This document shows positions 5,512 to 25,156 of a stretch of 64,000 nucleotides of DNA, piece after piece. The translations under genes and the position numbers were made by a program. How positions within the stretch are numbered: the first letter of the stretch is position 1; every line of letters begins with the position of its first letter. The notes under the pieces were generated by a model. That model was not told where the DNA came from. It did no database searches and saw nothing but the letters and a program-made list of their open reading frames with translations. The DNA lies in assembly GCA_029233925.1 (NCBI GenBank), contig JARGOX010000009.1, positions 124,001 to 188,000 of the forward strand. The letters run 5' to 3'. This stretch comes from Rhizobiaceae bacterium. GTDB lineage: Bacteria > Pseudomonadota > Alphaproteobacteria > Rhizobiales > Rhizobiaceae.

Positions 5512-5658
5512 GGATACAACGCTCCTCACGACTGATCCTGCCCGATTCTCAATATACGGGCATGGCGAAGTGTGCGCTGAATTAGCCGAAAAACCGTCCC
5601 TGATGCAAGGGGTGCGTGTAGATTGTTGCGCGGACACGGACAAAAAATGCAGTGACGA

Positions 5659-7934: not shown

Positions 7935-8969
7935 TTGTCTTTTGCAAAATATAAAAAACGCGCGTCAGAACAAATCGACGCGGCATACAGGTATGGCAGT
8001 TACAGGCTGCATAACGGTGAGAGCAATTCATTGAATTGCCGGTTCATTTCCAGTGACGGCCTGAGAAAATCCTGTGATGAAGGCTTTAAAGCCGGACATC
8101 CATTTGGACCAATCGAGCGGCCCGGCAAATTTTCACCACACCGTGATAATTGCCTCTATGTCAAAACCGATTTTTTAAGTGAATTTGCCGACCGAGCGCT
8201 CAACAAGATCGACCAGCCTTTTGTTTTGGCAACAGGCAACAGTGATTTCGGCCTGGCCTCGGATTTCGTCAAGACGGACACGGTCGAACAGATTTTGGCG
8301 CATCCGCAGTTGACGGCCTGGTATGCACAGAACTGTGACTATACGCATCCACGGCTCCATCCCATGCCGATCGGTTTGGACTATCACACACTTTCATCGC
8401 GGTTTCGCTATCAGTCGTGGGGCTATTTTTCCACCCCGCAGCAGCAAGAGGCAGCGCTCAATCGTGTGCGGCTTGAAGCGCCGGACCTGACGGACAAGTC
8501 TGTATCAGCCTATTGCAATTGGCATCACGTGCTCAACCGAGGTGACAGGCTTGCCTGCATCAATGGGGTAGAGCTCGAAACCATCAAGCTGGAAGAACCT
8601 GCCGTGCGCCGGGATCGCAGTTGGAAGAACAATGCGCAACATTTTTACACACTCAGCCCATTGGGCAACGGGTTGGATTGTCATCGCACCTGGGAAGCGC
8701 TGCTTTTAGGCTCGGTGCCCATTGTCGGTGCATCCGCCCTATCCGGATTGTTCGCAGACCTTCCCGTTTGTGTGGTCGATGACTGGCGCCTTGTCACGCG
8801 CGCATATCTCGAAGAGACCCGGCAGCGCATATTGCAGTCCGAATTTGATTTCGCACCGCTTTATCTTTCCTACTGGCAGAGCCTGTTTCGTGGTGAGGAA
8901 ACACAGCCCACCCGGGTGCAATCATTTCAGACATTCATCAGGACAGCGCATGACAAGCCGGCTGTTTGA
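7935..8969 (+). CDS. Exostosin/GT47-like glycosyltransferase
   Basis: A 344-residue soluble protein without signal peptide or membrane segment. Its best-conserved part is near residues 245-270: SPLGNGLDCHRTWEALLLG followed by SVPIV. This matches the nucleotide-sugar binding region of exostosin-like glycosyltransferases. No ATG lies near the 5' end; the only reasonable start is TTG at 7935, because an in-frame TAA occurs at 7902 and the first internal ATG would remove about 137 residues. The ribosome site is weak (GGGGCGG). It is divergent from the UDP-xylose synthase gene and may use that sugar donor, which is inference. Donor and acceptor are unknown. Confidence 0.7.
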   Translation: MSFAKYKKRASEQIDAAYRYGSYRLHNGESNSLNCRFISSDGLRKSCDEGFKAGHPFGPIERPGKFSPHRDNCLYVKTDFLSEFADRALNKIDQPFVLATGNSDFGLASDFVKTDTVEQILAHPQLTAWYAQNCDYTHPRLHPMPIGLDYHTLSSRFRYQSWGYFSTPQQQEAALNRVRLEAPDLTDKSVSAYCNWHHVLNRGDRLACINGVELETIKLEEPAVRRDRSWKNNAQHFYTLSPLGNGLDCHRTWEALLLGSVPIVGASALSGLFADLPVCVVDDWRLVTRAYLEETRQRILQSEFDFAPLYLSYWQSLFRGEETQPTRVQSFQTFIRTAHDKPAV

Positions 8970-9008
8970 GGTCAAATCCTGATCAATTGGTCGGAGCTGC
9001 CGCAGGAC

Positions 9009-9761
9009 TCATGATCCTGCCCGCTGCAGGCGAGTGCGCTCCAGCATGTCTTCGACTTCTCGTGCCGCTTCGGAAATCCGTGCCGGTTCGCGACCCCGCA
9101 CGACAATTTGGGTCGAATAGTTCCTGCCATCAAATTTCGGGTAGGAACCGATGACCGTGTCCATGTGACGGTTCTGAATATCGGAGAGTTCTTCACCGAT
9201 TGTCCCCTCGCCATAGGGACATTCAACAATGGTCGATTGAATAACGGTGCCAGTCTCGAGGGTCGGCAGCAAACCATCCAGCATTGCCTGGAAAATCGAT
9301 GGTACACCCGCCATCACATGGACATTGCCAATGGTGAAACCCGGTGCAGTCGATACCGGATTGGTGATGTGGGTCGCGCCGCGCGGCATGCGCGCCATGC
9401 GCTTGCGGGCGTCGGTGAATTCGAGGTCGCGTGCCTTGTAGACGGAGCCGAGCAGATCCATGGCCTTTTGATCATGCTCACAGGGCAGGTCAAAAGCCTT
9501 GGAGATGGCTTCTGCCGTGATGTCATCATGGGTGGGCCCAATGCCTCCCGATGTGAAGACATAGGTAAAACGGGCTCGCAATTCGTTGACCGCGGCGACG
9601 ATGGTCTGCTCCTCATCGCCGATGATACGCACCTCTTTCAGATCAATGCCGGCTGTCGTCAGCATGTCCGCCAGATGGGAAATATTCTTGTCTTTTGTAC
9701 GCCCCGAAAGCAGCTCGTCGCCGATGGCAATCATTGCTGCCGTTATGATTTTTTCTGACAT
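9009..9761 (-). CDS. CinA-type molybdopterin-binding domain protein
   Basis: A 250-residue protein of the MoaB/Mog-like fold family (COG1058, the N-terminal domain of CinA). Diagnostic segments are AAMIAIGDELLSGRTKDKN at residues 8-26, TSGGIGPTHDD around residue 70, and the NPVSTAPGF and MAGVPSIF blocks around residues 135-160. Full CinA proteins carry an extra C-terminal nicotinamide-nucleotide amidase domain, which is absent here. Related single-domain proteins are linked to ADP-ribose or nicotinamide nucleotide hydrolysis, but the activity of this one cannot be stated. It starts with ATG at 9761. Confidence 0.88.
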   Translation of the reverse strand: MSEKIITAAMIAIGDELLSGRTKDKNISHLADMLTTAGIDLKEVRIIGDEEQTIVAAVNELRARFTYVFTSGGIGPTHDDITAEAISKAFDLPCEHDQKAMDLLGSVYKARDLEFTDARKRMARMPRGATHITNPVSTAPGFTIGNVHVMAGVPSIFQAMLDGLLPTLETGTVIQSTIVECPYGEGTIGEELSDIQNRHMDTVIGSYPKFDGRNYSTQIVVRGREPARISEAAREVEDMLERTRLQRAGS

Positions 9762-9968
9762 GACCTATCCTCACAGCGGTTTTGATGTGACAGGTAGCGC
9801 GCATCCCTGTCGCTCGCAAGAGACTGACTGCCTTGCGTGCGCAAATGACCATTTTGCGCTGATGGATCAGGGGTACGGTGCGCGCTTTCATTGTGGCATT
9901 TGCCAGATCGCAGGTGGGGCAAGAATACAGGTGGGATCAATCTTCGGTCTATGTCAGAAAGACTTTCA

Positions 9969-10316
9969 ATGACAATGTTCTCATCCCTGGAGCCCATTAT
10001 CCTTGCTTTGGCATTTCTGGTCGTCATCAATCTGACAGGCTTCCTGTTGTTTGCCTGGGACAAACATTGCGCGCGGCAGGGAAGGTGGCGGGTAAAGGAG
10101 CGCACGCTTTTGCTGCTGGCAGCCCTGGGTGGAAGCATCGGGATTATCGCCGGTCAGAAAATACTGCGCCACAAAACCCGAAAACAACCTTTCAGGTCCT
10201 ATCTGGCCGCCATTGTCATCATGCAGATTGTCTTGTTGGCTGGCGTGATCTTTCCTGCGGGTCGTGATTGTATCCGGGCTGCCTTCACTGTTTTGGTTGG
10301 TGCGGCAGGGCAATAA
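9969..10316 (+). CDS. DUF1294 membrane protein
   Basis: A 115-residue inner-membrane protein with about three to four hydrophobic helices. The family signature is plain: FAWDKHCARQGRWRVKERTLLL around residues 28-49, then ALGGSIG, and RHKTRKQPF around residue 68. These basic loops are characteristic of DUF1294, whose function is unknown. The ATG at 9969 is chosen because the first helix starts just after it; the open frame upstream shows no similarity. The 295 bp after it (10317-10611) contain no gene and must hold the promoter of the following secreted-protein cluster. Confidence 0.85.
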   Translation: MTMFSSLEPIILALAFLVVINLTGFLLFAWDKHCARQGRWRVKERTLLLLAALGGSIGIIAGQKILRHKTRKQPFRSYLAAIVIMQIVLLAGVIFPAGRDCIRAAFTVLVGAAGQ

Positions 10317-10611
10317 TTGCAATGACAGTCTGCCAGGAACGTAAAGCTGAAGGTTGCCGAATGAAAATGAAAGTCTCTAGCCGGTTTGGCTAACGGATCG
10401 ACCAGGCGGGTTCGCTTTCGCCGTTGGATCTGCTGTTGGGCAGAAAGGTCAACCCATGAAATCAATGAGAAGAAGGTATTTCGTTCGGTAAAGTTTACGC
10501 ATGGCTATTGCTATTGCAATAATCCCATGGTCTTTTCAGATGGTGATTTTCAAACCACAATGATGAAGAAAATAGTACTTGTTATTATATTTCGAATGGG
10601 AATGAAAAATC

Positions 10612-13362
10612 GTGATTTATAAAAATTTCATGGGCTTTGTTGCTTGCGGATTGATGTCCGTGATATTCACTTTTCAAGCAAACGCACAAAACGCACGCAA
10701 TCAGAATTACAGTCTTTCTGATGCAAATTATGTCGTGCAATCCAGCGACAGGAGCGCGCTTGCTTATGTTGTCTGTCTGGAGGGCGCCTTTAATCGGCAG
10801 CCACGCAGGCTATCCAAACAAAGAGCCCTCGATAATGCGGTTGCGGAATGCGGAAATGTGGCTTTGCGCATACGCAGAGGGCAGCGCCAAAGGACCATCG
10901 AAAACATACGGTTGAGTGTGCTGGAATGTGGTTTCCGACCGGAGGATGCCACTCCGGGAATGGGTTGCGGCGAGGGCTATGGCGGTGATGACGACCGCTG
11001 GGTGGCCGATGTTGTCTATCCTGGCCCAAGGGTTGTCGAGGTGGGCAAGTGGCTCGAGGGTATTTCCTACGACGGCGGTTTCTTGTGGGCAACGGAGAGT
11101 GGCCAGCGCACGACAGCCAAAATTGATTTCCAAACAGGCAGACTTGTCGAGCGCTACCGGGTCGGACGCCTGCCGGTTCAGGTTGTGGCCAATGCAAACG
11201 GCTCAGCCCATGCCCTGGTTTCCACTGACAGGAAAATTGTGCGTCTCAGGCGCAATGGCTCGATCAGGGAACTTGCCCGATTGAATGGTTGTCCGGAGGA
11301 GATGGTGTCCAGCGATCCGCGCACCTTGTGGGTTCTGGCGAGCCCTGATTGCAGTTCGGGCACCAGCAATGTGATTCGTATCGACACGCGATCCGGCCGC
11401 CAGATTGTCACCGGCGATCTAGGCGAATGGGCACTGGATATCATCGACTTCGGGCCGGATGTGTGGGTCTCCCACGCGCGCGCACTGCCAATCAACATTG
11501 TCAATAAGGCAACGATGGACAGCCAGCCCTTCTACCTTGCAAATGCGGAACTTTGGGCGTTGGCGAAAGACGATGATTTCATCTATGGCGGTGGTCGTCC
11601 CAAGGGGACATCCAAAGATGGCGTTGTCGTCAAGATCAATCCGCTGAACACCTCTGAAGTGGCGAGAACCATTCTGCCGGAAATGGTCGTGCAGATCGCG
11701 TCGGATGGAAAGATTGTCTATGCCCTGTCGCAAAGCGGCAAGATCTGGCTTCTGTCTGCCAGGGATTTGACCTTGCTGCGCTCGGCGGTACCGGCGACCG
11801 GAACCTACCAGCCGACGGACGCCATTGTTGTGAATGGCAGACTTGTTGTTTCGTCCCAGCAATACAGGGGCGAAGATGGTGCGGTCTTGATCTTTGATGA
11901 CCTGGTGCCAGCAGACTGGGATGTCGCATCCAAACCTGGTGCCTTGCCACCAGCAACCACAGGGCCCAAACGTCCAAAACCAGCGCTGCCACCGGCGCAT
12001 GGTTCCGCAAACACGGTATTTCCGATGAATGCGATTTCGCGTGGAGGAACGGTGCGGCGCGCGCCAAGCGTCAGCGCCGCACGAATTGGCTCGTCAGTGA
12101 ATGGCGGGTCGATCACGCTGCTTGCCAACGCGGGCGGCAACTACCAGGGGTATCCGTGGTTCTCCATCAGATTGCCCAATGGTCTGCAGGGCTATCAATG
12201 GGGTGGAGCAATCTGCACAAGCGGCAATGCCATTGAGGGAATCAGGAGCGCCTGCAAGTCACTTGGCAATCCAACGCAAACGAACAATGGGCGACCTGCG
12301 GGTAACCCGGGTGGTACTTTGGACGCGAATGATGTCGTCGTCGGCGTTCTGGACATTTTTTCAAAACTTCTGGATAAAAATCTGCAGGATAAAAACGCCG
12401 GTTCAACCGACACGCAAATCGTGGAAACGCCGCTGCGGGTTTTCGCTGGAAAAAATGCAGTCCAGACCTCCGGTGCGCTGGCGCGAAACCAGTTGACCGT
12501 TTACGCAGTGAACGGAAAAGCAGGGCAGACGCTGCAGGTAGACCTGACAGCCACGCGCGGGTCCCCGACGTTTGAAATCTATGTCAATGAGGCCAGGAAC
12601 GGCGGCACGACGCTCGCTGGAGCCGGGCCCGACAGCAACGCAACATCCTTCAGGGGGCAATTGCCCAGCGATGGCGTTTTCAAGATTGTTGTTGGATCGA
12701 TGCGAGGGGCATCGGCTTTTCAACTTTCTGTAAAGCTGGAAAAGGTGGTCACCGGCAATGGAAACAATTCCGGAAACGCGCGCTATATCGGAACCTATGA
12801 AAGCCGCACCGCGCCCACTGGCAATATTGAACGCAATGGCAATGGCCTGATGTGGACTGATTTTGATGGACGTTCATTCGCACTGACCGTGGACAGGCGC
12901 AATCGTCAGTTGGTTACCGATACGAGGCGGCCGCGTACATTCGATCTCGACATGCGCAATGGGAAAGTCGTCGGTTTCAAGTTTGGTCGCCACACATATA
13001 CGCGCATGAAGCAAACCATCCTGCCATCGACCGGCAATGCAAACCCTCGTCGTCGTCCGAAAAATTCCTGTGATCTGCGCGGAAAGATCGTCTCGACATC
13101 TGTGCGCGAGGGCGCTGTTGCGACTTTTGCGAACTCGCGCGACAGCGATATCCATATCTATTGGATCAGCTACCAGGGCAAGGAGGTTGACTACAGTGGC
13201 AAGGCAAATCCGTTTTTCTCCCTCGTGCCAGACCAATTTCACCAGGTTGATACCCGTGTCGGATTTGCCTTTGTCGTTGTTGATGGCCGGGGAAACTGTA
13301 TTGATGTGGTTCAAACCGACAAAATGGATAATACCTTCGAGTTTCTGGAGCCTCCTTATTAG
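10612..13362 (+). CDS. Secreted multidomain protein: propeller-like, SH3-like, PPC-like and VHL-like beta domains
   Basis: A 916-residue exported protein starting at GTG (GGGAATG about 8 nt upstream). Its N-terminus is a signal peptide ending near AQA (residue 26). Residues 45-105 form a small cysteine-containing helical region. Residues 135-435 show repeated short strands with WATESG, YALSQSG and VWVSHA, like an NHL/YVTN-type beta-propeller. A proline-rich linker precedes an SH3-like domain at about 467-535 (RRAPSVSAARIG, then YPWFSIRL). A long linker leads to a PPC-like beta-sandwich at about 608-712. The last domain, about 818-905, begins CDLRG and contains YWISYQGKEVDYSG and RVGFAFVVVD: the VHL-beta pattern repeated four times in the next gene. 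Export is likely; the function is unknown. The gene is 88 bp from the 1606-aa gene and on the same strand. Confidence 0.8.
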   Translation: MIYKNFMGFVACGLMSVIFTFQANAQNARNQNYSLSDANYVVQSSDRSALAYVVCLEGAFNRQPRRLSKQRALDNAVAECGNVALRIRRGQRQRTIENIRLSVLECGFRPEDATPGMGCGEGYGGDDDRWVADVVYPGPRVVEVGKWLEGISYDGGFLWATESGQRTTAKIDFQTGRLVERYRVGRLPVQVVANANGSAHALVSTDRKIVRLRRNGSIRELARLNGCPEEMVSSDPRTLWVLASPDCSSGTSNVIRIDTRSGRQIVTGDLGEWALDIIDFGPDVWVSHARALPINIVNKATMDSQPFYLANAELWALAKDDDFIYGGGRPKGTSKDGVVVKINPLNTSEVARTILPEMVVQIASDGKIVYALSQSGKIWLLSARDLTLLRSAVPATGTYQPTDAIVVNGRLVVSSQQYRGEDGAVLIFDDLVPADWDVASKPGALPPATTGPKRPKPALPPAHGSANTVFPMNAISRGGTVRRAPSVSAARIGSSVNGGSITLLANAGGNYQGYPWFSIRLPNGLQGYQWGGAICTSGNAIEGIRSACKSLGNPTQTNNGRPAGNPGGTLDANDVVVGVLDIFSKLLDKNLQDKNAGSTDTQIVETPLRVFAGKNAVQTSGALARNQLTVYAVNGKAGQTLQVDLTATRGSPTFEIYVNEARNGGTTLAGAGPDSNATSFRGQLPSDGVFKIVVGSMRGASAFQLSVKLEKVVTGNGNNSGNARYIGTYESRTAPTGNIERNGNGLMWTDFDGRSFALTVDRRNRQLVTDTRRPRTFDLDMRNGKVVGFKFGRHTYTRMKQTILPSTGNANPRRRPKNSCDLRGKIVSTSVREGAVATFANSRDSDIHIYWISYQGKEVDYSGKANPFFSLVPDQFHQVDTRVGFAFVVVDGRGNCIDVVQTDKMDNTFEFLEPPY

Positions 13363-13450
13363 GGTTCAGTAGCCTTGAGATACAATCTTAAGTGCTTGTA
13401 ACATTTCCAAATGCGGCTTTCCGACAAGTTGATTTTGGCGGGAGTCAGAT

Positions 13451-16400
13451 ATGTTGAATGTGATCATTGTGAAATCGCTCCGGTTCCTGTCGGCATTTCT
13501 GTGTTGCTGGAGCTTGTCACAGAATGCGTTTGCGGATCACGCGCCGGGCGACAGCGCTCGCGCCGGCGACGACTTTGCAGCCTACCTGCACATGGACGGG
13601 CAAATCCTGACGCTCAGAAACGAAGGTTCCGGAGGGTTTTTACGCCAAGGCTACGGCGCCAGACGCGATGACAAACGCAATGTGGAAGCAGACAGAGGTC
13701 TGATCACAGCACCGCGGGGCAAGGGGTTTGATTGGGTTTTGAGGCCTGCTGGTGATGGCTACTGGTACATCGTCAATTTGAAGACAGTTCTTTTCCTCAC
13801 ATTGTCGGGCGACAGCGGCAAATCGCGCAATGTTGTCAATTGGGGATGGCATATTGGTGAAGATGATGACTTCAAATGGAAGATTGTCCCAGGGCCGATC
13901 AGATCCAGAATGCCCGGCTTCACCGAGCAGTTTCATATCGTCAACAAGGCCACGGGCTCCTATTTGAGAACGTTTGGAGGCAATGTGACGTCCATGCCCC
14001 ACGAAGGAAAATCCTTTGGGCACGAAAGTTTTCAATGGCGTGCACGCGGTTCTGAACTGACGGATTTCGAGCGGGACATTCGCGCAAAGACAAGCACAAC
14101 CAGATTGAGCCTGCCATCAGATGATCTTTCCAGTCTGTTGAAACTGACCATCACATCGGTGAAAGCCATCAAGACGTCCACGGGTCAGGACGGGGCGACC
14201 AAGGTGTTGTTCAGTGGCATTGATCTGGCCGTGGATATTGGTATGGGCGTTGCCAGCGGCGGCGCCAGTGCGGCTGGCAAGGCCGGCGCCAAAGCGGGCC
14301 TCAAAGCCATTTCGAAAAAGGCGAGCCGCGCGGTTACGAGAGAGGCCGTGCAAGCGGCAGCAGAAGCTGCATTGCGCCAGCAGGGCGAGAGAATCGTCAA
14401 GAAAGCCATCAGAAAAGGCGTACAGGAGGCCACCAACCGCGCATTGGGCGACCCAAAAACAAAAGTCAAGAATCGCGCCAAGCAGGCAATGGGTTTTGAG
14501 GGAGCGGCGGCGGCGGCTGCTAACGTTTCGAACGATGTGTTGAATGCGTTATCCAGCGAGGCAATCTTCAACAAGGTCTACGGCGACAGTGATGATGATC
14601 TGGAAATTGGCGTGAACGGCAGTTCGATTTTTCCAAACGGCGGTCGCTCGAAGGGGCGCAAAATCAGTTCGCAAGAGACCTTGTCCGTCAACAAGGTCGC
14701 GATATTTGAAGCTGATCGCGGCCTGGATATCCATTTGATCGAGTATGATTATGGCAGTGATGACGACTCCCTGGGCTGGTCTGAATGGCGTATGCCGGAT
14801 GAGCCCGGTTGGTTGGATCACTTCATCAAGACAAATGGGGTTCTCGAATACAATGGCGTTCTGATATCCAGTAAGTCGGAAGGCAGCCTCTACGAATTGA
14901 ATTACAGAATTGAACCGTTTCGACCCTATTTCCTCACCAGGGGCAAGTTGGGCAGAGCATCTCTGGAGCGTGAATACGCAAACCTTGGGTGCGTATCGGA
15001 TGATCCGGCGATTTGCGCAAGATATGTCAAGGAATTGATGGGTTTTGACAATTGGGTCAATCGTCCGCACATTCGCGATCAAGTGCTGGCAACATACCAA
15101 AAGCATTGCGAACATAAGGGCGGGGCGAGAAAAATCGAATGTCGCGAAACAGATGATCCGTTGCGCGCCACGTGCAATGCGGGACTCAAAGAGAGCTGCG
15201 AGAGAAAAGATGCCATCAACAAAGCCGCATCCCTTTTTGTCAACCTGAGGATTTGGGAGGGCAATTGCAGACAGAGCCAGGATCGTGAAGAAAACTGCAT
15301 CAAACTGGCAACAGCTTTCCTGGAGGGCGCCCCCTATGAAGGGCCTCCCTCAATCCAATTCAGATGGCAATCCACGGCACAATACCTGTACGAATTCTGT
15401 GAATCCGGTAGCGAATCCTCCTGCAGAATGAGCAGGGCTTTCAGTCAAAAGCTGTGTGCATATTTCGACGATGCCGGATGTTTCTACAGAGGCCGGCTGG
15501 ATGAAATGGGTATGGCCGGTCCTCTCGACACCGATGCCGCATCCAAATGGTACAAAACAGGTTGTCAGTTCAATGGTGGCACTTCCTGCGCCGCGATCGC
15601 GCAGATGAAACAGGACACGGCGAAGCAGGTATCTCTTTCACTCAGCAATCGCCAAACGGTTCCGCTCTACGCGCTTGCCCTCGCAGAGGCGGCTCGGGGC
15701 TGCGGGTATGGCAGTGAATTCAGTTGCTCCATTGCTTCGGACATTGAAGCCGAAATCACGGCCGAGAAAGAAAAGAACTACTACAAATGCGAGATCGCGA
15801 ACGACCATGCATTCTGCGCAGCAGCAGGCAGGGAGTTTGAGGAATCGCAACAATACGGTAGGGCGCGCAATGCCTATCAATCAGGCTGCGTGCGTGCCTA
15901 CAATGAAACCGCAGACGGCGCCGCTTGCTATGCATACGCCAAGATATTCCTGAACCATTCAGCAGAGTTGGCTCCGCAAACCGACCCGAACACTGATCCA
16001 AAGACGGATCCCGTGGATGTGCTGAAAGAATCTCTGCCGTTTTTCAAGATGGGCTGTGAAGTCAACCATCTTGAAAGCTGCATTGAGACTTCCAGAATAC
16101 TCACATCTGATACATTTGCAGACAGGGATCCGGATCAGGCCTATGCGCTGATACAAAAAATATGCGAAAATGCACTGCTAAATGGTGGCGAAGGGGCAGG
16201 AACGGCCTGCGACGAGCGCAATCGCGTATACGACCTTCTTCCGGTAACCATTCATGACAAGGGGTGCAAATCCGGCGATGCCGCTGCCTGTATCGCACTG
16301 GGCAATCATCGCATGAAGCCCTATGCAACCGGTCCTTTTCTACAGATCCCTGCCGAAGTCACTTGGGCACGGCATGATTATTTTGAGGCCTGCGCGCTGA

Positions 16401-18271
16401 ACAACGCGACAGGTTGCAAATTGCTGGGTGACCTCGATGTCCGATTGGCTCTCAGGGATGTTGATGTTCAGGCGGTTCTGCAGTTGGGAGAAAATGTCCT
16501 GGACGCGCGGGGCGAGTTTGTTTACGGGGCGCAAACGGCTTACGACAAAGCCTGCAAATTGCAAAACGCAGAGGCATGTTCCAGCCTGGAGGGCATGCTG
16601 GCCAATCCGATTTTCGGTCTTGGTGTCGGCGGCAACGGGAATTCGCCCGGGCAGACGCAAAACACACAAGCGTCGGGGAACCCGTCCACTGGCAATCCAG
16701 CGCCGCACAACGAGGCACCGAACAGCAATGGTGGCGCGGCCCGGTTGATCATCCAATCGGGCGACGGCTGCGCTCGTAGAGGTACGTTGGTATCTGACAC
16801 ATCAGGCGTTGGAGCCAATGTTACGCTGAACAATGTCGGCAAACATCAGCTCTTTGTTTACTGGCTGGACGAGAGCGGCAAGGATACGGATTACGATCGG
16901 TCCGGCAAGCCGCTGGCGGTGCTGCAGCCGGGAGAAACGCAGAAGATACGTTCAGCCACCGGCCTTGCCTATTCGATCTTCTCAGTTGACAATGGACAGA
17001 CCGAATGTGTTGGCGTTGCGGAAGTCACCGCCATTGAAACAACCATTCTCATGAGCCGCTATGTCGTTCCCACCAACAATGTGGCCAATGAAAACGTGCA
17101 ACAGCCGCCAATCGGCGATGTCGCAAATTCAACGGCCCTGGACGATCAGGACAATTTGGAACTGTTTGCCGGGGCAGGGTGTGACTTGCGCGGTTCTGTG
17201 ACGTCCTATCGCTCGGGTCAGCAAGCGGCGGTGTCTTTTATAAATACCGGTTCGGATCCGCTATATGTCTATTGGTTGGACGAGAACGGGTCTGACAACA
17301 ACTACGACTATACCGGAAGCGCCCTGGCTCTGGTCGAAGCCGGCCAAACGCAGGAGTTCGTCGGCGAAGTCGGTTTCGCCTATTCCGTGTTCTCCACCGC
17401 GGATCATCAATTGCAGTGTTTTGGCGTTGCGCAAATCAAGAGCGCCAACACTTTTATCTCCATGGCAAACGGCAGGGGCTCCGTGGATGACGATAGTGCG
17501 AACACCGCGAACGATCCGGTTTATCAGGATAGCATTTCCGTACCGACTGAAGTCGTTCTAGAAAGCGGATATGGCTGCGAAATGCGCGGCAATGTGGCAT
17601 CCGGCAATTCCGGCGCCGGCGCCAGAGTTTCCTTTGCAAATCACGGGTCCGACGCCTTGTTTGTCTATTGGATCGATGAAGGTGGATCCGATACGGATTA
17701 CAGCCATTCCGGAAGTCCACTGGCGCGCATTGCGGCAGGCGAAACCCGGGAACTGGATGGACGTGTCGGATTTTACTTTTCGGTGTTTTCTATGAGGGAT
17801 GGTCAAACCCAATGCGTCGGCATGACTGAAATCACGTCGCCTTCCGTGCGTGTCCAAATGTCGGGTGACAGCCTTGTCAGGAATTCGGACTATGCCAACG
17901 ACAATCAGACGGGTGATCAGGACATTGAAGATTACGACCAAGGCAACCAGGCTGGACAGGCCGGGCCGGGGTGTGAACTTCGTGGTCAACTGGCCTCATA
18001 CAACTCCGGCGAGGCTGCGACGGCGTCTTTCTACAATGCCGGCAGCGACATTCTTTACGTATATTGGCTGGATGAGAATGGGCAGGAGAACGACTATTCG
18101 GGATCGGGTGGGCCGCTTCTGGTTATCAACGCTGGAGATACCCAGGCAGTCGATGCCTATATCGGCTTCGCCTATGCCATGTTTTCAACCTCAAACGGCG
18201 AAACCGTGTGTGTCGGACTGACCGAAATTACGGAAAGCGATAGCGTTTTTGATGTCTCCAGCCTGTATTGA
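13451..18271 (+). CDS. Giant secreted mosaic protein: beta-trefoil, Cys-rich Sel1-like repeats, four VHL-like domains
   Basis: A 1606-residue exported protein starting at ATG 13451 with GGGAG upstream and a signal peptide ending near residue 28 (NAFA). Residues 37-198 look like a ricin-type beta-trefoil, with three spaced FxW motifs (FDWVL, FKWKI, FQWRA). Residues 215-380 are alanine/lysine-rich, helical and low in hydrophobic content. Residues 400-500 look like a beta-rich module. Residues 510-1065 contain many paired cysteines in a Sel1-like pattern (GCEVNHLESC, GCKSGDAAAC, ACKLQNAEAC), resembling disulfide-stabilised Hcp-type repeats. A Gly/Asn/Pro linker follows. Residues 1105-1600 hold four tandem VHL-like beta domains with their first cysteines at 1107, 1244, 1376 and 1508. 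I recognise no enzyme motif. The architecture suggests extracellular binding, possibly of glycans and proteins. Confidence 0.85.
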   Translation: MLNVIIVKSLRFLSAFLCCWSLSQNAFADHAPGDSARAGDDFAAYLHMDGQILTLRNEGSGGFLRQGYGARRDDKRNVEADRGLITAPRGKGFDWVLRPAGDGYWYIVNLKTVLFLTLSGDSGKSRNVVNWGWHIGEDDDFKWKIVPGPIRSRMPGFTEQFHIVNKATGSYLRTFGGNVTSMPHEGKSFGHESFQWRARGSELTDFERDIRAKTSTTRLSLPSDDLSSLLKLTITSVKAIKTSTGQDGATKVLFSGIDLAVDIGMGVASGGASAAGKAGAKAGLKAISKKASRAVTREAVQAAAEAALRQQGERIVKKAIRKGVQEATNRALGDPKTKVKNRAKQAMGFEGAAAAAANVSNDVLNALSSEAIFNKVYGDSDDDLEIGVNGSSIFPNGGRSKGRKISSQETLSVNKVAIFEADRGLDIHLIEYDYGSDDDSLGWSEWRMPDEPGWLDHFIKTNGVLEYNGVLISSKSEGSLYELNYRIEPFRPYFLTRGKLGRASLEREYANLGCVSDDPAICARYVKELMGFDNWVNRPHIRDQVLATYQKHCEHKGGARKIECRETDDPLRATCNAGLKESCERKDAINKAASLFVNLRIWEGNCRQSQDREENCIKLATAFLEGAPYEGPPSIQFRWQSTAQYLYEFCESGSESSCRMSRAFSQKLCAYFDDAGCFYRGRLDEMGMAGPLDTDAASKWYKTGCQFNGGTSCAAIAQMKQDTAKQVSLSLSNRQTVPLYALALAEAARGCGYGSEFSCSIASDIEAEITAEKEKNYYKCEIANDHAFCAAAGREFEESQQYGRARNAYQSGCVRAYNETADGAACYAYAKIFLNHSAELAPQTDPNTDPKTDPVDVLKESLPFFKMGCEVNHLESCIETSRILTSDTFADRDPDQAYALIQKICENALLNGGEGAGTACDERNRVYDLLPVTIHDKGCKSGDAAACIALGNHRMKPYATGPFLQIPAEVTWARHDYFEACALNNATGCKLLGDLDVRLALRDVDVQAVLQLGENVLDARGEFVYGAQTAYDKACKLQNAEACSSLEGMLANPIFGLGVGGNGNSPGQTQNTQASGNPSTGNPAPHNEAPNSNGGAARLIIQSGDGCARRGTLVSDTSGVGANVTLNNVGKHQLFVYWLDESGKDTDYDRSGKPLAVLQPGETQKIRSATGLAYSIFSVDNGQTECVGVAEVTAIETTILMSRYVVPTNNVANENVQQPPIGDVANSTALDDQDNLELFAGAGCDLRGSVTSYRSGQQAAVSFINTGSDPLYVYWLDENGSDNNYDYTGSALALVEAGQTQEFVGEVGFAYSVFSTADHQLQCFGVAQIKSANTFISMANGRGSVDDDSANTANDPVYQDSISVPTEVVLESGYGCEMRGNVASGNSGAGARVSFANHGSDALFVYWIDEGGSDTDYSHSGSPLARIAAGETRELDGRVGFYFSVFSMRDGQTQCVGMTEITSPSVRVQMSGDSLVRNSDYANDNQTGDQDIEDYDQGNQAGQAGPGCELRGQLASYNSGEAATASFYNAGSDILYVYWLDENGQENDYSGSGGPLLVINAGDTQAVDAYIGFAYAMFSTSNGETVCVGLTEITESDSVFDVSSLY
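16763..18238 (+). repeat. Four tandem VHL-like beta-domain coding repeats
   Basis: Within the 1606-aa gene, four copies of an approximately 90-codon domain lie near 16763-17035, 17174-17445, 17570-17840 and 17966-18238, separated by acidic, Asn/Asp-rich linkers of about 40-50 codons. The first cysteines recur at intervals of 137, 132 and 132 residues. Every copy has GxGC near its start, YW(L/I)D, a glycine five residues after the W, a tyrosine ten after the W, a glycine exactly ten residues before a second glycine that precedes an aromatic F/Y-rich strand, and a second cysteine near the end (CVG or CFG). The nucleotide copies are clearly divergent, so this is an old protein-level duplication. 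Confidence 0.85.
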
Positions 18272-18287
18272 ACAAGTGGAAACCGAA

Positions 18288-18842
18288 ATGAAAATACCAA
18301 TATTCGCCAGCCTTTCGATTGCGCTGCTTGGCGCCGCCCTGATGGCAACCATGGGGGCGTTGCCGGCAAAGGGCGCCAATACGCCTCCGCCTCCGCCCGT
18401 GTTGCCCAAAATGGGGAAAATACCCAATCCACCGTCTGTGGGGACTGCGCTGCCAAAGCCATTAAAACCGGGCGCTCTTCCTTCACTCCCAAAGATGGCA
18501 CCAGGACCGTCGATTCCAACCGCAGTGCCCGAATCGCCAATGGCAGGCTGGCGAGTCATCAGCTCGAAAGCGCTTGGTGTGAGTACCCTGTTGCAATTGG
18601 ACGGAGCCGTTGTATGCCTCGCTGATACAGGGGCCGGTGAATCTGGCGCTGTGATGGATTTCTTCTCGAAAAACAATATGACCGTGGAGCTTCTTCCGGG
18701 CGCAAGTGTCGATGAACTTCTATCCCCGTTTCAGAAGGGAAGGTGCGATGTTTTGGTCGTGAAAGCCTCACAGGCCAAGCGCCAACTGGCTGCAATGAAT
18801 GCGGCTGATGCCTATCTTCTATTGTCAGGAGCAATCGAATAA
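18288..18842 (+). CDS. Secreted protein with a single lobe of an amino-acid binding protein
   Basis: A 184-residue protein with a signal peptide (MKIPIFASLSIALLGAALMA, cleaved near residue 30). A proline-rich linker of about 60 residues follows (PPPPPVLPKMGKIPNPP and similar). The C-terminal part, about residues 85-175, reads LDGAVVCLADTG, VMDFFSKNNM and FQKGRCDVLVVKAS. These match the second lobe of AapJ-type general amino-acid binding proteins (family SBP_bac_3), in the same order and spacing. The first lobe and the hinge return are missing, so it is unlikely to bind ligand as a normal clamshell. ATG 18288 follows AAGTGGAAACCGAA, 16 bp after the 1606-aa gene, so co-transcription is likely. 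Confidence 0.65.
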   Translation: MKIPIFASLSIALLGAALMATMGALPAKGANTPPPPPVLPKMGKIPNPPSVGTALPKPLKPGALPSLPKMAPGPSIPTAVPESPMAGWRVISSKALGVSTLLQLDGAVVCLADTGAGESGAVMDFFSKNNMTVELLPGASVDELLSPFQKGRCDVLVVKASQAKRQLAAMNAADAYLLLSGAIE

Positions 18843-18907
18843 TCGTCACAAACCCGGGAAGGGGTGAACGGATACCAGGTCAGTCGGTAATTTGTTCCAT
18901 AGATTCA

Positions 18908-19318
18908 ATGATTTTGAAAAAGAGCACACATTCAAGTCGCTTGATTTTCGTGCGTTCAGTGGCTGCAGCAGTGGCCATGCTTGCTTTTGGTGGCGCGCAT
19001 GCTGCAGCCCAGGATGCTATCTATACGGACCATGCATCAGAAAAAGGCAGTTGCGCCGTCGCTCCCGACATGCTGATCAGCCATGCGGAAGACGCTGTTT
19101 GCGGCCCGGGCTTTTCCTGTGAGCGGTCCAATTTTGCGCCAGCGGGCTCTGGCCTGTGCAACCACGACGGGGCGTGCATCATTGATGGGCAAGAGGCTTC
19201 GGGCTATGTCACATTTGATCTCGGCAACTACTCAGATCATTTTGAAGTTGCATTGCCGACACGCGAGGGATGGTTATCCATGTATCCCTGCACACCCGTG
19301 GCACAATTGGAAAACTGA
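18908..19318 (+). CDS. Small secreted cysteine-containing protein, unknown function
   Basis: A 136-residue protein that I do not recognise. Residues 1-34 form a signal peptide (RSVAAAVAMLAFGGAHAAAQ). The mature part has six cysteines, consistent with disulfides outside the cytoplasm, and a run of Asp/Gly-containing strands. The start is uncertain: ATG 18908 has no good ribosome site and a GTG at 18950 is possible. It lies 65 bp after the truncated binding-protein gene on the same strand, and probably belongs to the same secreted-protein cluster. Confidence 0.6.
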   Translation: MILKKSTHSSRLIFVRSVAAAVAMLAFGGAHAAAQDAIYTDHASEKGSCAVAPDMLISHAEDAVCGPGFSCERSNFAPAGSGLCNHDGACIIDGQEASGYVTFDLGNYSDHFEVALPTREGWLSMYPCTPVAQLEN

Positions 19319-19401
19319 TTTTGCACGCGCGCCCATCCCATCAAACGAATCTGGATGATGGGTAACGACCTGAAAATGGTCAGAACCGGTGGAGAAAAAA
19401 T

Positions 19402-20259
19402 TTGGAAAAAATTCGCAACGCATTGGTTCTGGTCAAAGCCAGTTGGCGCGTGCTGATGCTGGACAAGGAACTTCTTGTATTCCCTGTCCTGTCGTTGACC
19501 ATTCTGGCTGCTTTGCTCATGGCGGCTCTTGGCCCGATCGGCATGTTCAGCAATCCGGAAACAGCGATTGATACCATATCCGACACGCTTGCCAACCAGC
19601 AGGAATGGGTGTTGCTGGCATGCTCCTTCGTCGCTTATTTTATCGCCTATTTCGTGATGATTTTCTTTAACGCCGCGATGATCGCCTGCGTCAAGATCCG
19701 CTTCGCCGGCGGTGATCCCACGGTGATGGACGGGTTGCGCTTTTCCACGGGGCGTCTTCCTCAGATACTGGCCTGGGCCCTGGTCGCCTCTTCGGTCGGC
19801 TTTGTGCTTGGTCAGTTGGAAAAGAAAAGTGACGGGATCACCCGGTTTCTCCTTGGTTTTCTTGGAAGCGCCTGGGCTGTTTCCAGCTATTTTGTTGTGC
19901 CTGTACTGGTATCGGAACACATCGGCCCCATCAGTGCGGTCAAACGTTCCGTTGCGATCGTCAGGAAAACCTGGGGGGAGTCACTGGTCTCGGTTGTCGG
20001 ATTGTCCGTGTTGTCAGGGATTTCCATGGTGCTCATCGTTGGGGTGTTTATGATCGCTATGGTGATCGCTGATTCATCACCCTATCTGGCGATCTCTCTT
20101 GGCCTGGTTGCGATTGCCCTTGGTATTCTGAGCGGCCTGATTTTCTCGACGCTTGGATCAATCCTGAAAGCTGCGCTCTATGTTTATGCCGTGGAGGGAA
20201 AAATCCCGGATCAATTTGATGACAATTTGATCAAAGGCGCTTTTTCCTCCAAAAAATAA
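19402..20259 (+). CDS. Polytopic membrane protein, DUF6159-like
   Basis: A 285-residue inner-membrane protein with about six hydrophobic segments. It opens with SWRVLMLDKELLVFPVLS, a pattern typical of DUF6159-type proteins (start near 'dkeLlvFP'). A mid-protein SSYFVVPVLVSEHIGP and AVKRSVAIVRKTWGE also fit this membrane family. The start is TTG 19402, preceded by GGAG with good spacing (19391-19394). It may close the secreted-protein cluster transcriptionally (84 bp gap), but no functional link can be shown. Its function is unknown. Confidence 0.7.
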   Translation: MEKIRNALVLVKASWRVLMLDKELLVFPVLSLTILAALLMAALGPIGMFSNPETAIDTISDTLANQQEWVLLACSFVAYFIAYFVMIFFNAAMIACVKIRFAGGDPTVMDGLRFSTGRLPQILAWALVASSVGFVLGQLEKKSDGITRFLLGFLGSAWAVSSYFVVPVLVSEHIGPISAVKRSVAIVRKTWGESLVSVVGLSVLSGISMVLIVGVFMIAMVIADSSPYLAISLGLVAIALGILSGLIFSTLGSILKAALYVYAVEGKIPDQFDDNLIKGAFSSKK

Positions 20260-20428
20260 GGCTGAAGCCATGTTCCATGGGGGAATTATGCCAACAGCCC
20301 TTGATCCGCAGCCTTATTGACAGCTCTGGGCTGTGTATATGGTGTGAAAATCATAGGCTGGAACAGGTCCGTGAAACAGCGTTATCGCAGGCACGGACGC
20401 AGGCCTTCTTCCCCAGTCCAAATTTCTG

Positions 20429-21748
20429 TCAGCGACCTGTGCGCATATAGATCCCTAGATCTTTGGCAGTCGCAGTGTTGAACCTGTCCCGCAGCGCAAG
20501 CAATTGGCCGACGTCCGTTGACAACAGGGCATGCGCTTTGGCTTGAAGGCGCGTGGTCAAAGCCTCGATCGATGGCTGTTTGGCCAAGTCATGCGCAAAA
20601 GGCTGGATGGCACCAGAGGTTGTCCGAAGCGTGCCAAAAGCCTGCTGGTCACCCACTTCGCCATCTCCCACCACGGTGACTTTGCTTGCAGTGCCCCTGA
20701 GTGAGTGATCGCTGGCCAGTGCATCGTCATAGACGCGATCATCTGCCGTGGGAATCTCGTGAAACACCATTGCCGCCAGCCAGGCATAGCTGAATTTGAC
20801 TTCAAGGCCCGTGCGCGGCGCTGCGATATTGCAGACCGAGAGCCAACGGGGATTGGTTCTCAGCTCAATAGCGGAAACCTCCTGTGGATTTATTGGGTGA
20901 TCCTGACGCAGGGTGGACAGTGCTTCGATCATCGCATGCGTTCCGTGGCAACAGGCATGGAACTTGTAGCTGTTGCGCAGGAAGCGGAATTGTTCCGGCG
21001 GCGCATCCGCCCAGGCTGAGATTTCATCAATTTCATCGGTATGAGTCGGTACAAATCCCTGTGCACCCATGATTCCATCATCCGCCGAGGTCAGACCGAG
21101 AACGGCAAGGGCAGTGGCCTCAACGCCGTTCGCTGCGGACAAGCCGGCATTGAGTGGCTTGCCCATCGTCCCGAACTGCGACTTGAGGCCGGATGCCCTG
21201 CTGGCGCAAAGGCCAAGGGCGTTCCGCAGCTGGTTCGGAGTAAGTTTGCGCAGGCGCGCTGCGGTGATGGTTGCACCGAATGCACCGGCCGTAGCGGTCT
21301 GATGAAAACCGCGGTTGTAATGGGCCGCTCCGAGAATGCAGCCGATCCGGATCGCCGCTTCCGCGCCGATCAGAAAGGCGTCGGCGACCTCAGTCACACT
21401 GGCATTGACCTCCTCGCCAACGGCCAGCGCAGCCGGATAAATGCCCACCGACAAATGACCAACATGATCAAAATGCGTATCGTCGTAGTCAAGGGCATGA
21501 CTGGTTGCGCCATTGACCATGGCGGCCATCCGCGGTGGCGCCATGCCGCCGCCAAAGAGCGAACACGGTCCGGACAGCCCCTCGGCAGCCGCAAAGGCTC
21601 GCATATTGGTGGCAACCGGTTCGTTGATACCCGCCCGCCCGCAGAGCAGCCAGTCGAAGAGGGAGAGCAGCGCCAGTGCCCGCGCTTTGTCGGGCAGGGT
21701 TTCAGCGGGTTGGGGTGCGAGTGCGAGCAGATGGTCCATTGTGTTCAT
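20429..21748 (-). CDS. MmgE/PrpD family protein
   Basis: A 439-residue protein of the MmgE/PrpD family, which includes 2-methylcitrate dehydratase and cis-aconitate decarboxylase-like enzymes. Clear family blocks are NGATSHALDYDDTHFDHVGH around residues 75-95, GFHQTATAGAFGA near 140, and YKFHACCHGTHAMIEAL near 260. The ATG at 21748 begins the conserved region; upstream codons show no similarity and no strong ribosome site. There is no prpB/prpC partner nearby, so assignment to the methylcitrate cycle is not supported. Substrate is unknown. Confidence 0.88.
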   Translation of the reverse strand: MNTMDHLLALAPQPAETLPDKARALALLSLFDWLLCGRAGINEPVATNMRAFAAAEGLSGPCSLFGGGMAPPRMAAMVNGATSHALDYDDTHFDHVGHLSVGIYPAALAVGEEVNASVTEVADAFLIGAEAAIRIGCILGAAHYNRGFHQTATAGAFGATITAARLRKLTPNQLRNALGLCASRASGLKSQFGTMGKPLNAGLSAANGVEATALAVLGLTSADDGIMGAQGFVPTHTDEIDEISAWADAPPEQFRFLRNSYKFHACCHGTHAMIEALSTLRQDHPINPQEVSAIELRTNPRWLSVCNIAAPRTGLEVKFSYAWLAAMVFHEIPTADDRVYDDALASDHSLRGTASKVTVVGDGEVGDQQAFGTLRTTSGAIQPFAHDLAKQPSIEALTTRLQAKAHALLSTDVGQLLALRDRFNTATAKDLGIYMRTGR

Positions 21749-22031
21749 GATTGGCCTGTCGAGTGGGATTCGATCCGGAGACGATGTGCGTTCCAAAAGA
21801 TCGCATGGAGGAGGGGGCCTGTGCAATTGCGCTTTTCATCAAAACGCTGATCCATATTGCGTATATTGTTGTTTTGATACCCGGTAGGGAATTCCAAGGA
21901 ATCATCATTCAATGAAACGATCCATGCATTCAAGGGGCAAATTCAAGGGGAGAAAATGGCAGCGGCTTCGTGATCTGCATGATGTTTGTCATTGGTTTTT
22001 TGTAACCTGAATGGCGCCCGCCACCCCATTT

Positions 22032-25028
22032 CTATGATCTGCTCTTGCCTGTACATTTCGGATAGGTGACGCAACCCAGGAACCGACCGTAGCGACCGGA
22101 TCGCTCGACAAGCCAGCCATCGTCGCATGCCGGACAGATCGGAAAGGAGGCGCCACAGGAACAATAGGCTTCACTGGAGGAGGTCTGCCGCTCAGGCAGT
22201 CCCACGCCACAGGTTGGACATGCCGACAGGGAATGGCCACAGAGTTCCGCGTGCTCACATCGATACCAGGTTCGCCCGTCTTTCGTCGGGAATGCCAGAA
22301 GGTGGCCACCGCATTGGCCGCAGGTCTTGTCAGGTGGCTGATCTTCATTGCAATTGGCAATTTCGTATTCCGCGTCATCCAGCAACTCGCTGACAAAGGC
22401 AGACTGTTTGGTGACTGATCCCATCAGCGTCAGGGTGTGGCGCGCGCGGGTCATGGCGACATACATGACCCGGCGTTCTTCAGCATTCTCAAAAGGCTCT
22501 GCATCCGGGGAGACCAGGTTCAAAAGCGGATCGTCGACGATCTCCGATGGAAACCCGGTGCGCCCTCTATGGAGGTTCAGCAGAACCACATGGTCCGCTT
22601 CCAAACCTTTGGACGCGTGAATGGTTCGAAACGAAACATCGAGATTGGGGAATTTTTTCCGCAAATCGTTCAAGCCAATGGGAGCGAGATATCTATACCT
22701 GCCAAGGAGTAGGATGCTTGCCTTCTTGCCCTCCGATTTGGCCTGTTGCGATAGCCCTCGAAGCACATTCTCAAGCTTGGTGTCGGCATTGTGACGGAAT
22801 GTCGACACGACTCTGACAGCAGGTGCCGCAGCCTTTCCCGCTGGTATGACTGTTTTTTCTATCTGCGCGGGGTTCTTCAAGACAAATTTACGGGCCGCAT
22901 AGGCGATTTTGTCAACAGAACGAAAGGTTCTGCCCAGATCTACGGTTCGGTGAACAGCGGTCTGACCATCGAAATGGCCACCGAATTCAGCGCCGAAATT
23001 GCGCATGAGATTGATATCGGATCCGGCAAACCGATAGATCGACTGCCAATCATCCCCAACCGCGAAAACGCGGGCGTCCTGATGCTGTGCTTTTAACGCC
23101 TGAACAAGACGGCCACGGCTGCGGGAAATATCCTGAAATTCGTCCACCAGAATATGCCGAAAGGTGCTGCGGTATTGTCCTGATTCAACATATTGTGACG
23201 CCCGCAGGATCATATCTTCGAAGTCGATACGGTCACCAAGGCGCTTTTGATACGCGCCATAGACCGGTTCGAAGATCGATAGAAACGCCTTCGCGCGGCG
23301 TCCGATTTTCAGCGTCCGATTCTTGGCCTCGCAGTCTGCCATACTGTAGCCGCCGCCTTTGTAGTGTCGAAGGAAAGTCCCGAGCAACTGAATGAAACTG
23401 TCGAGTTGATTCAGATCGGCGACCTGATCAAAAAGCGTTTCGCGCGAGCGTGGTTCGAGCGTCTCAAAGGGAGATATTTTTTCCACCAGCGCTTCCAGCA
23501 GGCAATTCTCCTGGCGTTCATAGCTGAAAGTTTCAATCAATGTGGTTTCATTGGCTTCGTGGACGTCACGCTTCCAGGCCATGTCCGCCAAATAGTCTTC
23601 GCGGTCAATGTATGGCGCGGTTGAAAGTTGGTACGATCCGTCGGGTGTCATGGTGCGTCTTACGCCGAAGTGTTCGATGTAGACGCCACTTTTCGTAAGG
23701 CGGAAATCGGGGCAGTAGTTGCGACGACCGGCATCGGAGATGTCGTGTTCGTAGTCTGGCTCGTATTCGTATTCGATTCCGTTTTCATAGAGCCAGTTGG
23801 CGATTACAAGCTCCTCGAAACTTTTGACTCGTTCGCCTTGCAGAGTCCGAAGGTCGGCCTTTTCGATGTATGTGTAGAATTCGTGCTTTTTCTTGAAATC
23901 CCATTCACTTTTCTCATCCAGCCTGACGTATGAGAACCATCCGATTATTGCCCTCGATACCTCTGAAACCGATGCTACCAGGCTCCTTAGAATTTCCTTG
24001 AGCAGTGCCAGAAAGGCCTTGTCATCACTGGCGTGCGCAGCCAGTGCTGGCTTGCTGCCTTCGACTACGCCAATGATGTCATAGGCCAATGCGTGAAATG
24101 TTCGCGCTTCCAAAGGCTCGCCACAGGACAGCTTGATACGCTCTGACATCTCATTGGCGGCGTTTCTGGCGAAGGCGAGCAGGAGAATTTCCTCCGACTT
24201 TCGTCTGCCTGACTTGAGCAAATAGGCCGCCTTGGCTGTGATGACGCTTGTCTTTCCCGAGCCTGCGCCGGCAAGCACCAGGGTCGCATCTTCATCGGCG
24301 ATGATGGAAAGCCTTTGCTCTGGAGTCAGTGGGTTTTTGTCGAATGTGTCGAAAAAAGCCTGCCAATGGGCAAGTTCTGCCTTCTCGAAGCGCGCAATGG
24401 CCTGATTGCGCAGAGAACCTGGGTTCCCGATGAAGTCACGGATCTTTTGCACCTGCTGGGAATGCGCTTTGCCTAATGCTTCGGAAGGAAGTTTTGAAAA
24501 CAGCATTGTGTCGAGCGCCCGGGCCTGGTCAAGAATTGGTGCAAGAACACAGGCGGCGGGATAGCGGGTTGGCAGGTCAAGGGCTTCCAATGCGCTCAAA
24601 ATCGCATCAATCTCACTGCGCTTTTCCTCCAATAGTTCCACATTGAAAGCGATCCAGTCTTCCTGGACATGCCGCACAAAGATGTGTGCATTCTGTTGAT
24701 CCACGCCCTTGAGAGCGATGTTGCTGCCGTCGTCAATCTGGATGTTGATCGTCGTTGCCAGCACGCCATTTGTTGTGGCGGGAGAGGCTGCAAGGTTGCT
24801 CAGCTGAATCTTCAGAATTCGCCGGGCATCGATGAGCAGTTCACGGTCACGGTATTCCATTCCCCGGGCATGCATCCCGAATGGATTGAAAAGAAGCGAC
24901 AGGAACGGTTTTGGTCTTATGCGCATCAGATGAGTCAACTCGCTTGGAGGAACACCGCCATAAGGCGCTTGTATAGCGCATCGTTCTTTAGGGTTGATAA
25001 AGCTTTCATCATCGAGAATATAAGGCAA
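22032..25028 (-). CDS. HelD-like superfamily 1 DNA helicase with nuclease-like insert and zinc ribbons
   Basis: A 998-residue UvrD/Rep-type helicase resembling E. coli helicase IV. Residues 35-200 match the HelD N-terminal region. Walker A is LVLAGAGSGKTS near residue 250. The DEFQD Walker B motif is near 628, with GDDWQSIYRFAGSD and TIHASKGLEADHV (motifs III and V-like) and VMYVAMTRA (motif VI) after it. Around residues 410-450, ANWLYENGIEYEYEP, YCPDF and YIEHFG form a PD-(D/E)xK nuclease-like insertion typical of HelD. The last 95 residues hold several CxxC pairs, including a topoisomerase-type zinc ribbon ending GRFLGCVTYPKC. The TTG start (AAGG upstream) is tentative; ATG 24926 is an alternative. 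It probably unwinds DNA in repair. Confidence 0.85.
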   Translation of the reverse strand: MPYILDDESFINPKERCAIQAPYGGVPPSELTHLMRIRPKPFLSLLFNPFGMHARGMEYRDRELLIDARRILKIQLSNLAASPATTNGVLATTINIQIDDGSNIALKGVDQQNAHIFVRHVQEDWIAFNVELLEEKRSEIDAILSALEALDLPTRYPAACVLAPILDQARALDTMLFSKLPSEALGKAHSQQVQKIRDFIGNPGSLRNQAIARFEKAELAHWQAFFDTFDKNPLTPEQRLSIIADEDATLVLAGAGSGKTSVITAKAAYLLKSGRRKSEEILLLAFARNAANEMSERIKLSCGEPLEARTFHALAYDIIGVVEGSKPALAAHASDDKAFLALLKEILRSLVASVSEVSRAIIGWFSYVRLDEKSEWDFKKKHEFYTYIEKADLRTLQGERVKSFEELVIANWLYENGIEYEYEPDYEHDISDAGRRNYCPDFRLTKSGVYIEHFGVRRTMTPDGSYQLSTAPYIDREDYLADMAWKRDVHEANETTLIETFSYERQENCLLEALVEKISPFETLEPRSRETLFDQVADLNQLDSFIQLLGTFLRHYKGGGYSMADCEAKNRTLKIGRRAKAFLSIFEPVYGAYQKRLGDRIDFEDMILRASQYVESGQYRSTFRHILVDEFQDISRSRGRLVQALKAQHQDARVFAVGDDWQSIYRFAGSDINLMRNFGAEFGGHFDGQTAVHRTVDLGRTFRSVDKIAYAARKFVLKNPAQIEKTVIPAGKAAAPAVRVVSTFRHNADTKLENVLRGLSQQAKSEGKKASILLLGRYRYLAPIGLNDLRKKFPNLDVSFRTIHASKGLEADHVVLLNLHRGRTGFPSEIVDDPLLNLVSPDAEPFENAEERRVMYVAMTRARHTLTLMGSVTKQSAFVSELLDDAEYEIANCNEDQPPDKTCGQCGGHLLAFPTKDGRTWYRCEHAELCGHSLSACPTCGVGLPERQTSSSEAYCSCGASFPICPACDDGWLVERSGRYGRFLGCVTYPKCTGKSRS

Positions 25029-25156
25029 ATCGCCTTAAGCACCGCGCTTGCCGCGCGTTCCGACCGGATTAAAATTGTATCGGCGTTTTCAGTCATGCGA
25101 AGGGCTGCAGAGCAATTACCATAGGAAAAGTTGCTTGCAGGTCGGTTACGAAAAAA

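What the first reader, a model, noticed from the sequence alone, without database searches (positions are those of the whole stretch)
16763..18238. Four tandem VHL-like beta domains in a bacterial secreted protein
Seen directly: four copies, plus one in the neighbouring 916-aa protein, share W-x4-G-x4-Y. In human VHL the same positions are W88, G93 and Y98. They also share G-x9-G before an aromatic strand, as human G104 to G114 (the first G is D in the 916-aa copy). Between Y and the first G the bacterial copies have about seven extra residues. W88 and Y98 contact hydroxyproline in human VHL; the bacterial copies keep both but have F and Y where human has H115 and W117. Each copy adds two cysteines, suiting an exported, disulfide-bonded domain. 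VHL was long regarded as eukaryotic; tandem, secreted, cysteine-stabilised forms are to my knowledge not functionally described. Binding of hydroxyproline or prolyl-rich host proteins is speculation.
Basis: partly seen in the sequence, partly recalled or inferred. Interest (0 to 1): 0.88.

Follow-up and report, generated by a model that had tools for sequence, protein, structure and literature searches.

The report
Tandem VHL-fold domains in bacterial protein
A probably exported bacterial protein carries four copies of the fold with which the human tumour suppressor VHL reads hydroxyproline; in these copies the reading pocket has been rebuilt, while simpler relatives in other bacteria keep it almost as in humans.

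Summary

The copies belong to a derived class. All 16 sampled members have 7-8 extra residues after VHL Y98; none has the H115 or W117 equivalent. The other 52 bacterial domains examined lack the insert, and 49 keep W88, S/T111, H115 and W/F117, the human hydroxyproline pocket. So hydroxyproline binding is unlikely for the window copies and plausible for the simpler relatives. Two conserved cysteines are general to the bacterial forms.

Most likely role: a large exported, multivalent binding protein (lectin-like head, solenoid, VHL array). This is inferred; no ligand is known. The gene is patchy: 1 of 8 genomes of its genus. Bacterial VHL domains are already in Pfam and one 2022 paper; I found no account of tandem, pocket-changed arrays. 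New variant of a known kind.

The parts
13451..18271 (+). 1606-aa multidomain protein that carries the VHL-type array
   Evidence: ORF; translation; relatives L021 (39% over 806 columns of the N-terminal half) and L020 (27% over 1198 columns) by BLASTP
13451..13534 (+). signal-peptide-like start (residues 1-28, hydrophobic, ending AFA)
   Evidence: read from the sequence and a simple hydropathy window; no signal-peptide program was run
13526..14065 (+). ricin-type beta-trefoil lectin-like head (outer limits approximate)
   Evidence: PF14200 9.2e-8, 33.1 bits against cut-off 25.6, best stretch residues 95-147
14123..14950 (+). Gly/Ala-rich stretch and acidic, perhaps C2-like segment, shared with other VHL-bearing proteins
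   Evidence: BLASTP: residues 51-492 to L054 32%, 1e-46; 26-500 to L021 49%; two pieces to L069, 6e-14 and 6e-11; none to L020. 'C2-like' is my reading, not a tool result
15182..16441 (+). cysteine-rich helical-repeat solenoid, Sel1/Hcp-like
16742..17056 (+). VHL-type domain, copy 1
   Evidence: A1 profile
17153..17464 (+). VHL-type domain, copy 2
   Evidence: A1 profile
17546..17863 (+). VHL-type domain, copy 3; the copy that was modelled
   Evidence: A1 profile; model and fold searches
17954..18268 (+). VHL-type domain, copy 4, ends the protein
   Evidence: A1 profile
10612..13362 (+). 916-aa neighbour with one C-terminal VHL-type domain
   Evidence: ORF; weak SH3_3 and PPC matches, both below cut-off
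13054..13350 (+). VHL-type domain of the 916-aa protein
   Evidence: groups with the tandem copies
13350..19187 (.). segment without counterpart in the close relative L022, which keeps both flanks; it holds the 1606-aa gene, the 197-aa ORF and most of the 136-aa ORF
   Evidence: blastn blocks 3063-13349 (91%) and 19188-21829 (94%) lie 121 bp apart in L022

Best explanation
The four copies are homologues of the VHL beta domain, repeated on linkers at the end of a long modular protein that has a signal-peptide-like start. Shown: homology and predicted fold, tandem arrangement, two invariant cysteines, a 7-residue insert next to Y98 of the ligand site, and loss of H115, one of the two side chains that hold the hydroxyl of hydroxyproline in human VHL (the other, S111, is S or T in 2 of the 5 window copies). 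Inferred: export, a disulfide in each copy, and function: the array works as a multivalent binding tail of an extracellular protein of adhesin or receptor type, each domain offering a site with W88, Y98 and an aromatic at 117 that binds something other than hydroxyproline, such as an unmodified prolyl stretch or a glycan; the lectin-like head and the solenoid give further contacts. The simpler bacterial VHL domains, which keep the human pocket, probably represent the older state from which this class arose.
Confidence: 0.6

Rival explanations
1. Hydroxyproline readers: the copies bind hydroxyproline-rich host or matrix proteins (collagen, plant or algal cell-wall glycoproteins) as human VHL binds HIF.
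For: W88 is kept in 16 of 16 and Y98 in 14 of 16 (F in 2) class members, and position 117 is aromatic in 15 of 16. The simpler bacterial domains keep W88, S/T111, H115 and W/F117 in 49 of 52.
Against: In human VHL the Hyp hydroxyl is held by Ser111 and His115 (passages of PMC9528729); H115 is kept in 0 of 16 and S/T111 in 6 of 16 class members. The insert follows Y98 directly.
Confidence: 0.08
2. Structural spacer: the copies are rigid beads that hold the lectin-like head and solenoid away from the cell, without a ligand of their own.
For: Beads on Asn/Asp-rich linkers (sequence); copy number varies among relatives: 4 here, 4 plus a weak fifth in L020, 6 in L021.
Against: W88, G93 and G114 are invariant in 16 of 16 and position 98 is Y or F in 16 of 16, more than a bead seems to need. 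Window copy 1 pairs with the first clear Cohaesibacter copy (98/85), so at least that copy has been kept distinct across families; other pairings are weaker.
Confidence: 0.22
3. Another beta-sandwich family (for instance DUF1425) that resembles VHL by chance.
For: The only Pfam match inside the array of the window protein is a sub-threshold DUF1425 hit, 0.0031, 17.8 bits against 28.3.
Against: All 50 structural rows shown in each list are pVHL; profile A5 finds human VHL at 4e-9.
Confidence: 0.03

Closest known systems
VHL beta domain, Pfam PF01847 (human pVHL residues about 61-152)
   Same: Predicted beta-sandwich fold; W88, G93, Y98, G114, N78 and mostly S65 and G104 equivalents
   Different: Seven extra residues after Y98, H115 and W117 replaced, two cysteines, tandem, signal-peptide-like start, no alpha domain
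Simpler bacterial VHL-domain proteins: 51 single-type ORFs here; EMK97_00595 of Litorilituus sediminis (PMC9002001, passages read)
   Same: Same domain family; two conserved cysteines in the ones examined here; the Litorilituus protein is predicted secreted in that paper
   Different: Human-like pocket (49 of 52 domains) and no insert in the ones examined here, mostly one copy; 22 of 51 carry another shared unnamed domain upstream
Cohaesibacter celericrescens 1761-aa protein (L020) and Hyphomicrobiales MAG NORP22 1747-aa protein (L021; the same DNA as G746/L024)
   Same: Related middle region plus an array of the same class; L021 also the related head
   Different: Four or six clear copies; L020 has a Vps62 match (PF06101, 5.5e-7) and no BLASTP match to the window head
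Helicobacter cysteine-rich proteins HcpB/HcpC (Sel1-like repeats)
   Same: Fold type and cysteine-rich repeats of the middle region
   Different: 17-18% identity over the aligned part; no VHL array (recalled)

Membership tests
VHL beta-domain superfamily | VHL beta-sandwich fold | tested here: met
VHL beta-domain superfamily | Sequence match to PF01847 over its cut-off | tested here: inconclusive
   Not reached by the window proteins or copies. Reached by L021 by whole-protein score only, by L054, and by the bridging contig-13 ORF in the genome search (21.8 bits) but not when its protein was scanned alone (19.2 bits against 21)
VHL beta-domain superfamily | Statistically supported link to human VHL through relatives | tested here: met
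   A5 4.3e-9, A4 6.9e-4
Hydroxyproline-reading VHL domain | W88, Y98, S/T111, H115, W117 | tested here: not met
   H115 and W117 in 0 of 5 window copies and 0 of 16 of the class
Hydroxyproline-reading VHL domain | Binds hydroxyprolyl peptide | not testable with these tools
   needs a binding assay
pVHL E3-ligase subunit | Alpha domain with BC box after the beta domain (recalled) | tested here: not met
   Copy 4 ends at the stop codon; other copies are followed by linker and the next copy; no alpha-domain family in the Pfam scan
Sel1/Hcp-type repeat proteins (middle region) | Sel1-like helical hairpins with paired cysteines | tested here: inconclusive
Ricin-type beta-trefoil lectin | PF14200 over cut-off | tested here: met
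   33.1 bits against 25.6

The most novel reading that the evidence does not exclude
Exported bacterial VHL domains are genuine prolyl or hydroxyprolyl readers: the pocket by which animals sense oxygen through HIF is an old extracellular peptide-binding site, kept in simple bacterial proteins, and the tandem class is a branch in which that site was rebuilt for another ligand and multiplied into an avidity array.
Probability: 0.25. Interest if true: 0.85.

Novelty: new variant of a known kind. Interest (0 to 1): 0.62.

Why it matters
VHL is known as the animal oxygen-sensing adaptor that reads hydroxyproline. Finding its pocket conserved in bacterial domains that look exported, and rebuilt in a tandem class, turns the origin of hydroxyproline reading into a question that can be tested at the bench with purified bacterial domains. 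It also gives a natural contrast (pocket kept against pocket changed) for learning what the site can bind, of use to those who design VHL ligands.

Tried and rejected
Direct routes that failed: Pfam on the window proteins and on the five copies found no VHL; NCBIfam none; profiles A1 and A2 against PDB sequences gave only weak hits (best 0.077 delta-endotoxin; 0.28 multicopper oxidase). The first look at minus-strand loci read the wrong strand and was redone.

The second structure job (residues 26-1090, three sequences) was poor outside the solenoid, mean pLDDT 46.3; no claim on the fold of the N-terminal half is made from it. The viral structure library gave two matches at E 1e-3 or better, uncharacterised or unnamed, with poor superposition (TMq 0.52 and 0.50, rmsd 10.6 and 5.8); not pursued.

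Considered: recent transfer of the segment. GC of 13350-19187 is 0.540 against 0.547 for the window, no sign of foreign make-up; loss in L022 is as likely, since L022 keeps a diverged, gapped match to the end of the 136-aa ORF. No match to the 1606-aa protein in 72,556 plasmid records (near records may be left out by the tool). A prolyl hydroxylase partner was sought: one PF13640 match in the genome, on another contig; nothing concluded.

Limits of the counts. 67 loci were scanned; 108 domain matches reduced to 68 distinct sequences from 54 loci. Seven of the 52 simpler domains (L013-L019) were collected with PF01847 itself; without them 42 of 45 keep the pattern W.[ST]H[WF], and 25 of 45 the exact W-Y-[ST]-H-W. 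The three that do not are L008, L060 and L009, whose ORF ends before position 117. 'Tandem class' is labelled by source protein and includes the single copies of the 916-aa protein and its L022 orthologue. Searches gave at most 30 loci each, so weaker matches without a locus did not enter; copies of L069, L070 and L073-L077, fetched later, are not in the counts either. The first-look step of the genome searches scored at most 12-13 candidates per genome in many rows, so those tallies are lower bounds. Flanks of 1500 bases may cut off companion domains. Relative entropy favours rare letters; by plain identity among the 52 the order is G93 52, H115 50, W88 50, N78 48, S65 47, W117 46.

Full report
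What is there. The ORF 13451-18271 encodes 1606 residues; its last 510 or so hold four copies of a domain of about 105 residues, and the upstream 916-aa ORF (10612-13362) ends in a fifth. The pattern W-x4-G-x4-Y occurs four times in the 1606-aa protein, against a mean of 0.067 and a maximum of 2 in 2000 shuffles. Two cysteines, W, G, Y and a later G are among the 12 invariant columns of the five copies.

Two classes. I aligned 68 distinct domain sequences, from 67 loci scanned, with human VHL 63-122. Sixteen come from the tandem proteins and the 916-aa orthologues; 52 from other proteins. The 16 have 9 (15 of them) or 10 letters between VHL Y98 and L101, where human VHL and all 52 others have 2. 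In human VHL the hydroxyproline site is lined by W88, Y98, H110, S111, H115 and W117, and S111 and H115 bind the hydroxyl (passages of PMC9528729). At W88, Y98, S111, H115 and W117 the 52 read W.[ST]H[WF] in 49 cases and exactly W-Y-[ST]-H-W in 32; the 16 never do. Without the seven rows that PF01847 itself collected the figures are 42 and 25 of 45. In the 16, W88 is kept in 16, Y98 in 14 (F in 2), S or T111 in 6, H115 in none, W117 in none, with Y or F at 117 in 15 and at 115 in 10. A tree of the 68 rows and human VHL puts the 16 and one divergent row (L008) on one branch with support 96/92; the 16 alone form a group in 19% of 200 bootstrap trees. It pairs window copy 1 with a Cohaesibacter copy (98/85), so the array is not wholly a recent local duplication. 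With about 100 columns many forks are unresolved, and human VHL is on a long branch of unsure place.

Distribution. A1 matched 5 of 199 genomes of the family; PF01847 7 of 385 of the class; A4 68 of 397 of the order, 10 of 398 of the phylum, 1 of 78 of the class of G1149, 2 of 8 of the genus. The samples overlap, all but include the home genome, and many are lower bounds. PF01847 rang in 0 of 14 control genomes. In the genus only the home genome has the tandem gene; G1285 has a 916-aa type and a contig-13 type copy, and six have no match at 1e-3. The close relative L022 (a Rhizobiaceae MAG) has both flanks at 91-94% and lacks 13350-19187. Small stand-alone VHL proteins with W-Y-T-H-W lie on plasmids of Nostoc and Calothrix, annotated as hypothetical, so the simple form is not confined to Pseudomonadota.

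What it does. Shown: predicted fold, homology, classes, arrangement. Inferred: export, disulfide, binding. I think a multivalent extracellular binding tail most likely (0.6). Hydroxyproline is an unlikely ligand for the window copies (0.08), because H115 is gone from all five and S/T111 from three of five. It remains a fair guess for the simpler class, in which those positions are among the most conserved; that is the more interesting outcome of this check.

What is known. Bacterial VHL domains are within reach of Pfam, and one was described in silico in Litorilituus sediminis as a predicted secreted protein (PMC9002001, passages read). Six searches of the paper library were made; five bear on bacterial VHL, the sixth on residue roles. 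They showed me no account of tandem bacterial VHL domains or of the pocket's conservation in bacteria; one search listed 20 of 22 papers and only 15 of 1,417, the library lacks most subscription journals, and I saw listings only apart from passages of two papers. The pVHL alpha domain is recalled.

Noticed in passing
   Followed up: partly
L073:2899-3261 and L074:2875-3225 (Nostoc and Calothrix plasmids): About 116-120 aa stand-alone VHL-domain proteins with a human-like W-Y-T-H-W pocket, annotated as hypothetical; beside the Nostoc one is an integrase gene, with nuclease genes near by.
   Followed up: partly
51 single-type ORFs, e.g. L027:763-1782: 22 of 51 carry a shared domain of about 130 residues upstream of the VHL domain that Pfam did not name in L027; in a Jannaschia plasmid (L075) what looks like it is a separate gene beside the VHL gene.
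   Followed up: partly
window 18249-18842: 197-aa ORF, proline-rich start and a tail that looks like a truncated periplasmic solute-binding protein (my reading; no Pfam match).
   Followed up: no
window 18908-19318: 136-aa cysteine-containing ORF with a signal-like start; L022 keeps only a diverged, gapped match to its end.
   Followed up: partly
window 21830-25153: A second stretch, mostly the 998-aa helicase-like ORF, has no blastn match in L022, which has about 1.8 kb of other DNA there: the neighbourhood is variable.
   Followed up: no
G000:C24, L008:1198-1767: Divergent single-domain relative in the same genome that falls with the tandem class on a long branch and lacks W88 and H115.
   Followed up: partly
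L020:5465-10747: The Cohaesibacter tandem protein has a Vps62 match (PF06101, 5.5e-7), a family that I recall mainly from eukaryotes.
   Followed up: no
L041:802-1770: 323-aa ORF with two simpler VHL domains in tandem that both keep T111 and H115: tandem arrangement also occurs with the human-like pocket.
   Followed up: no
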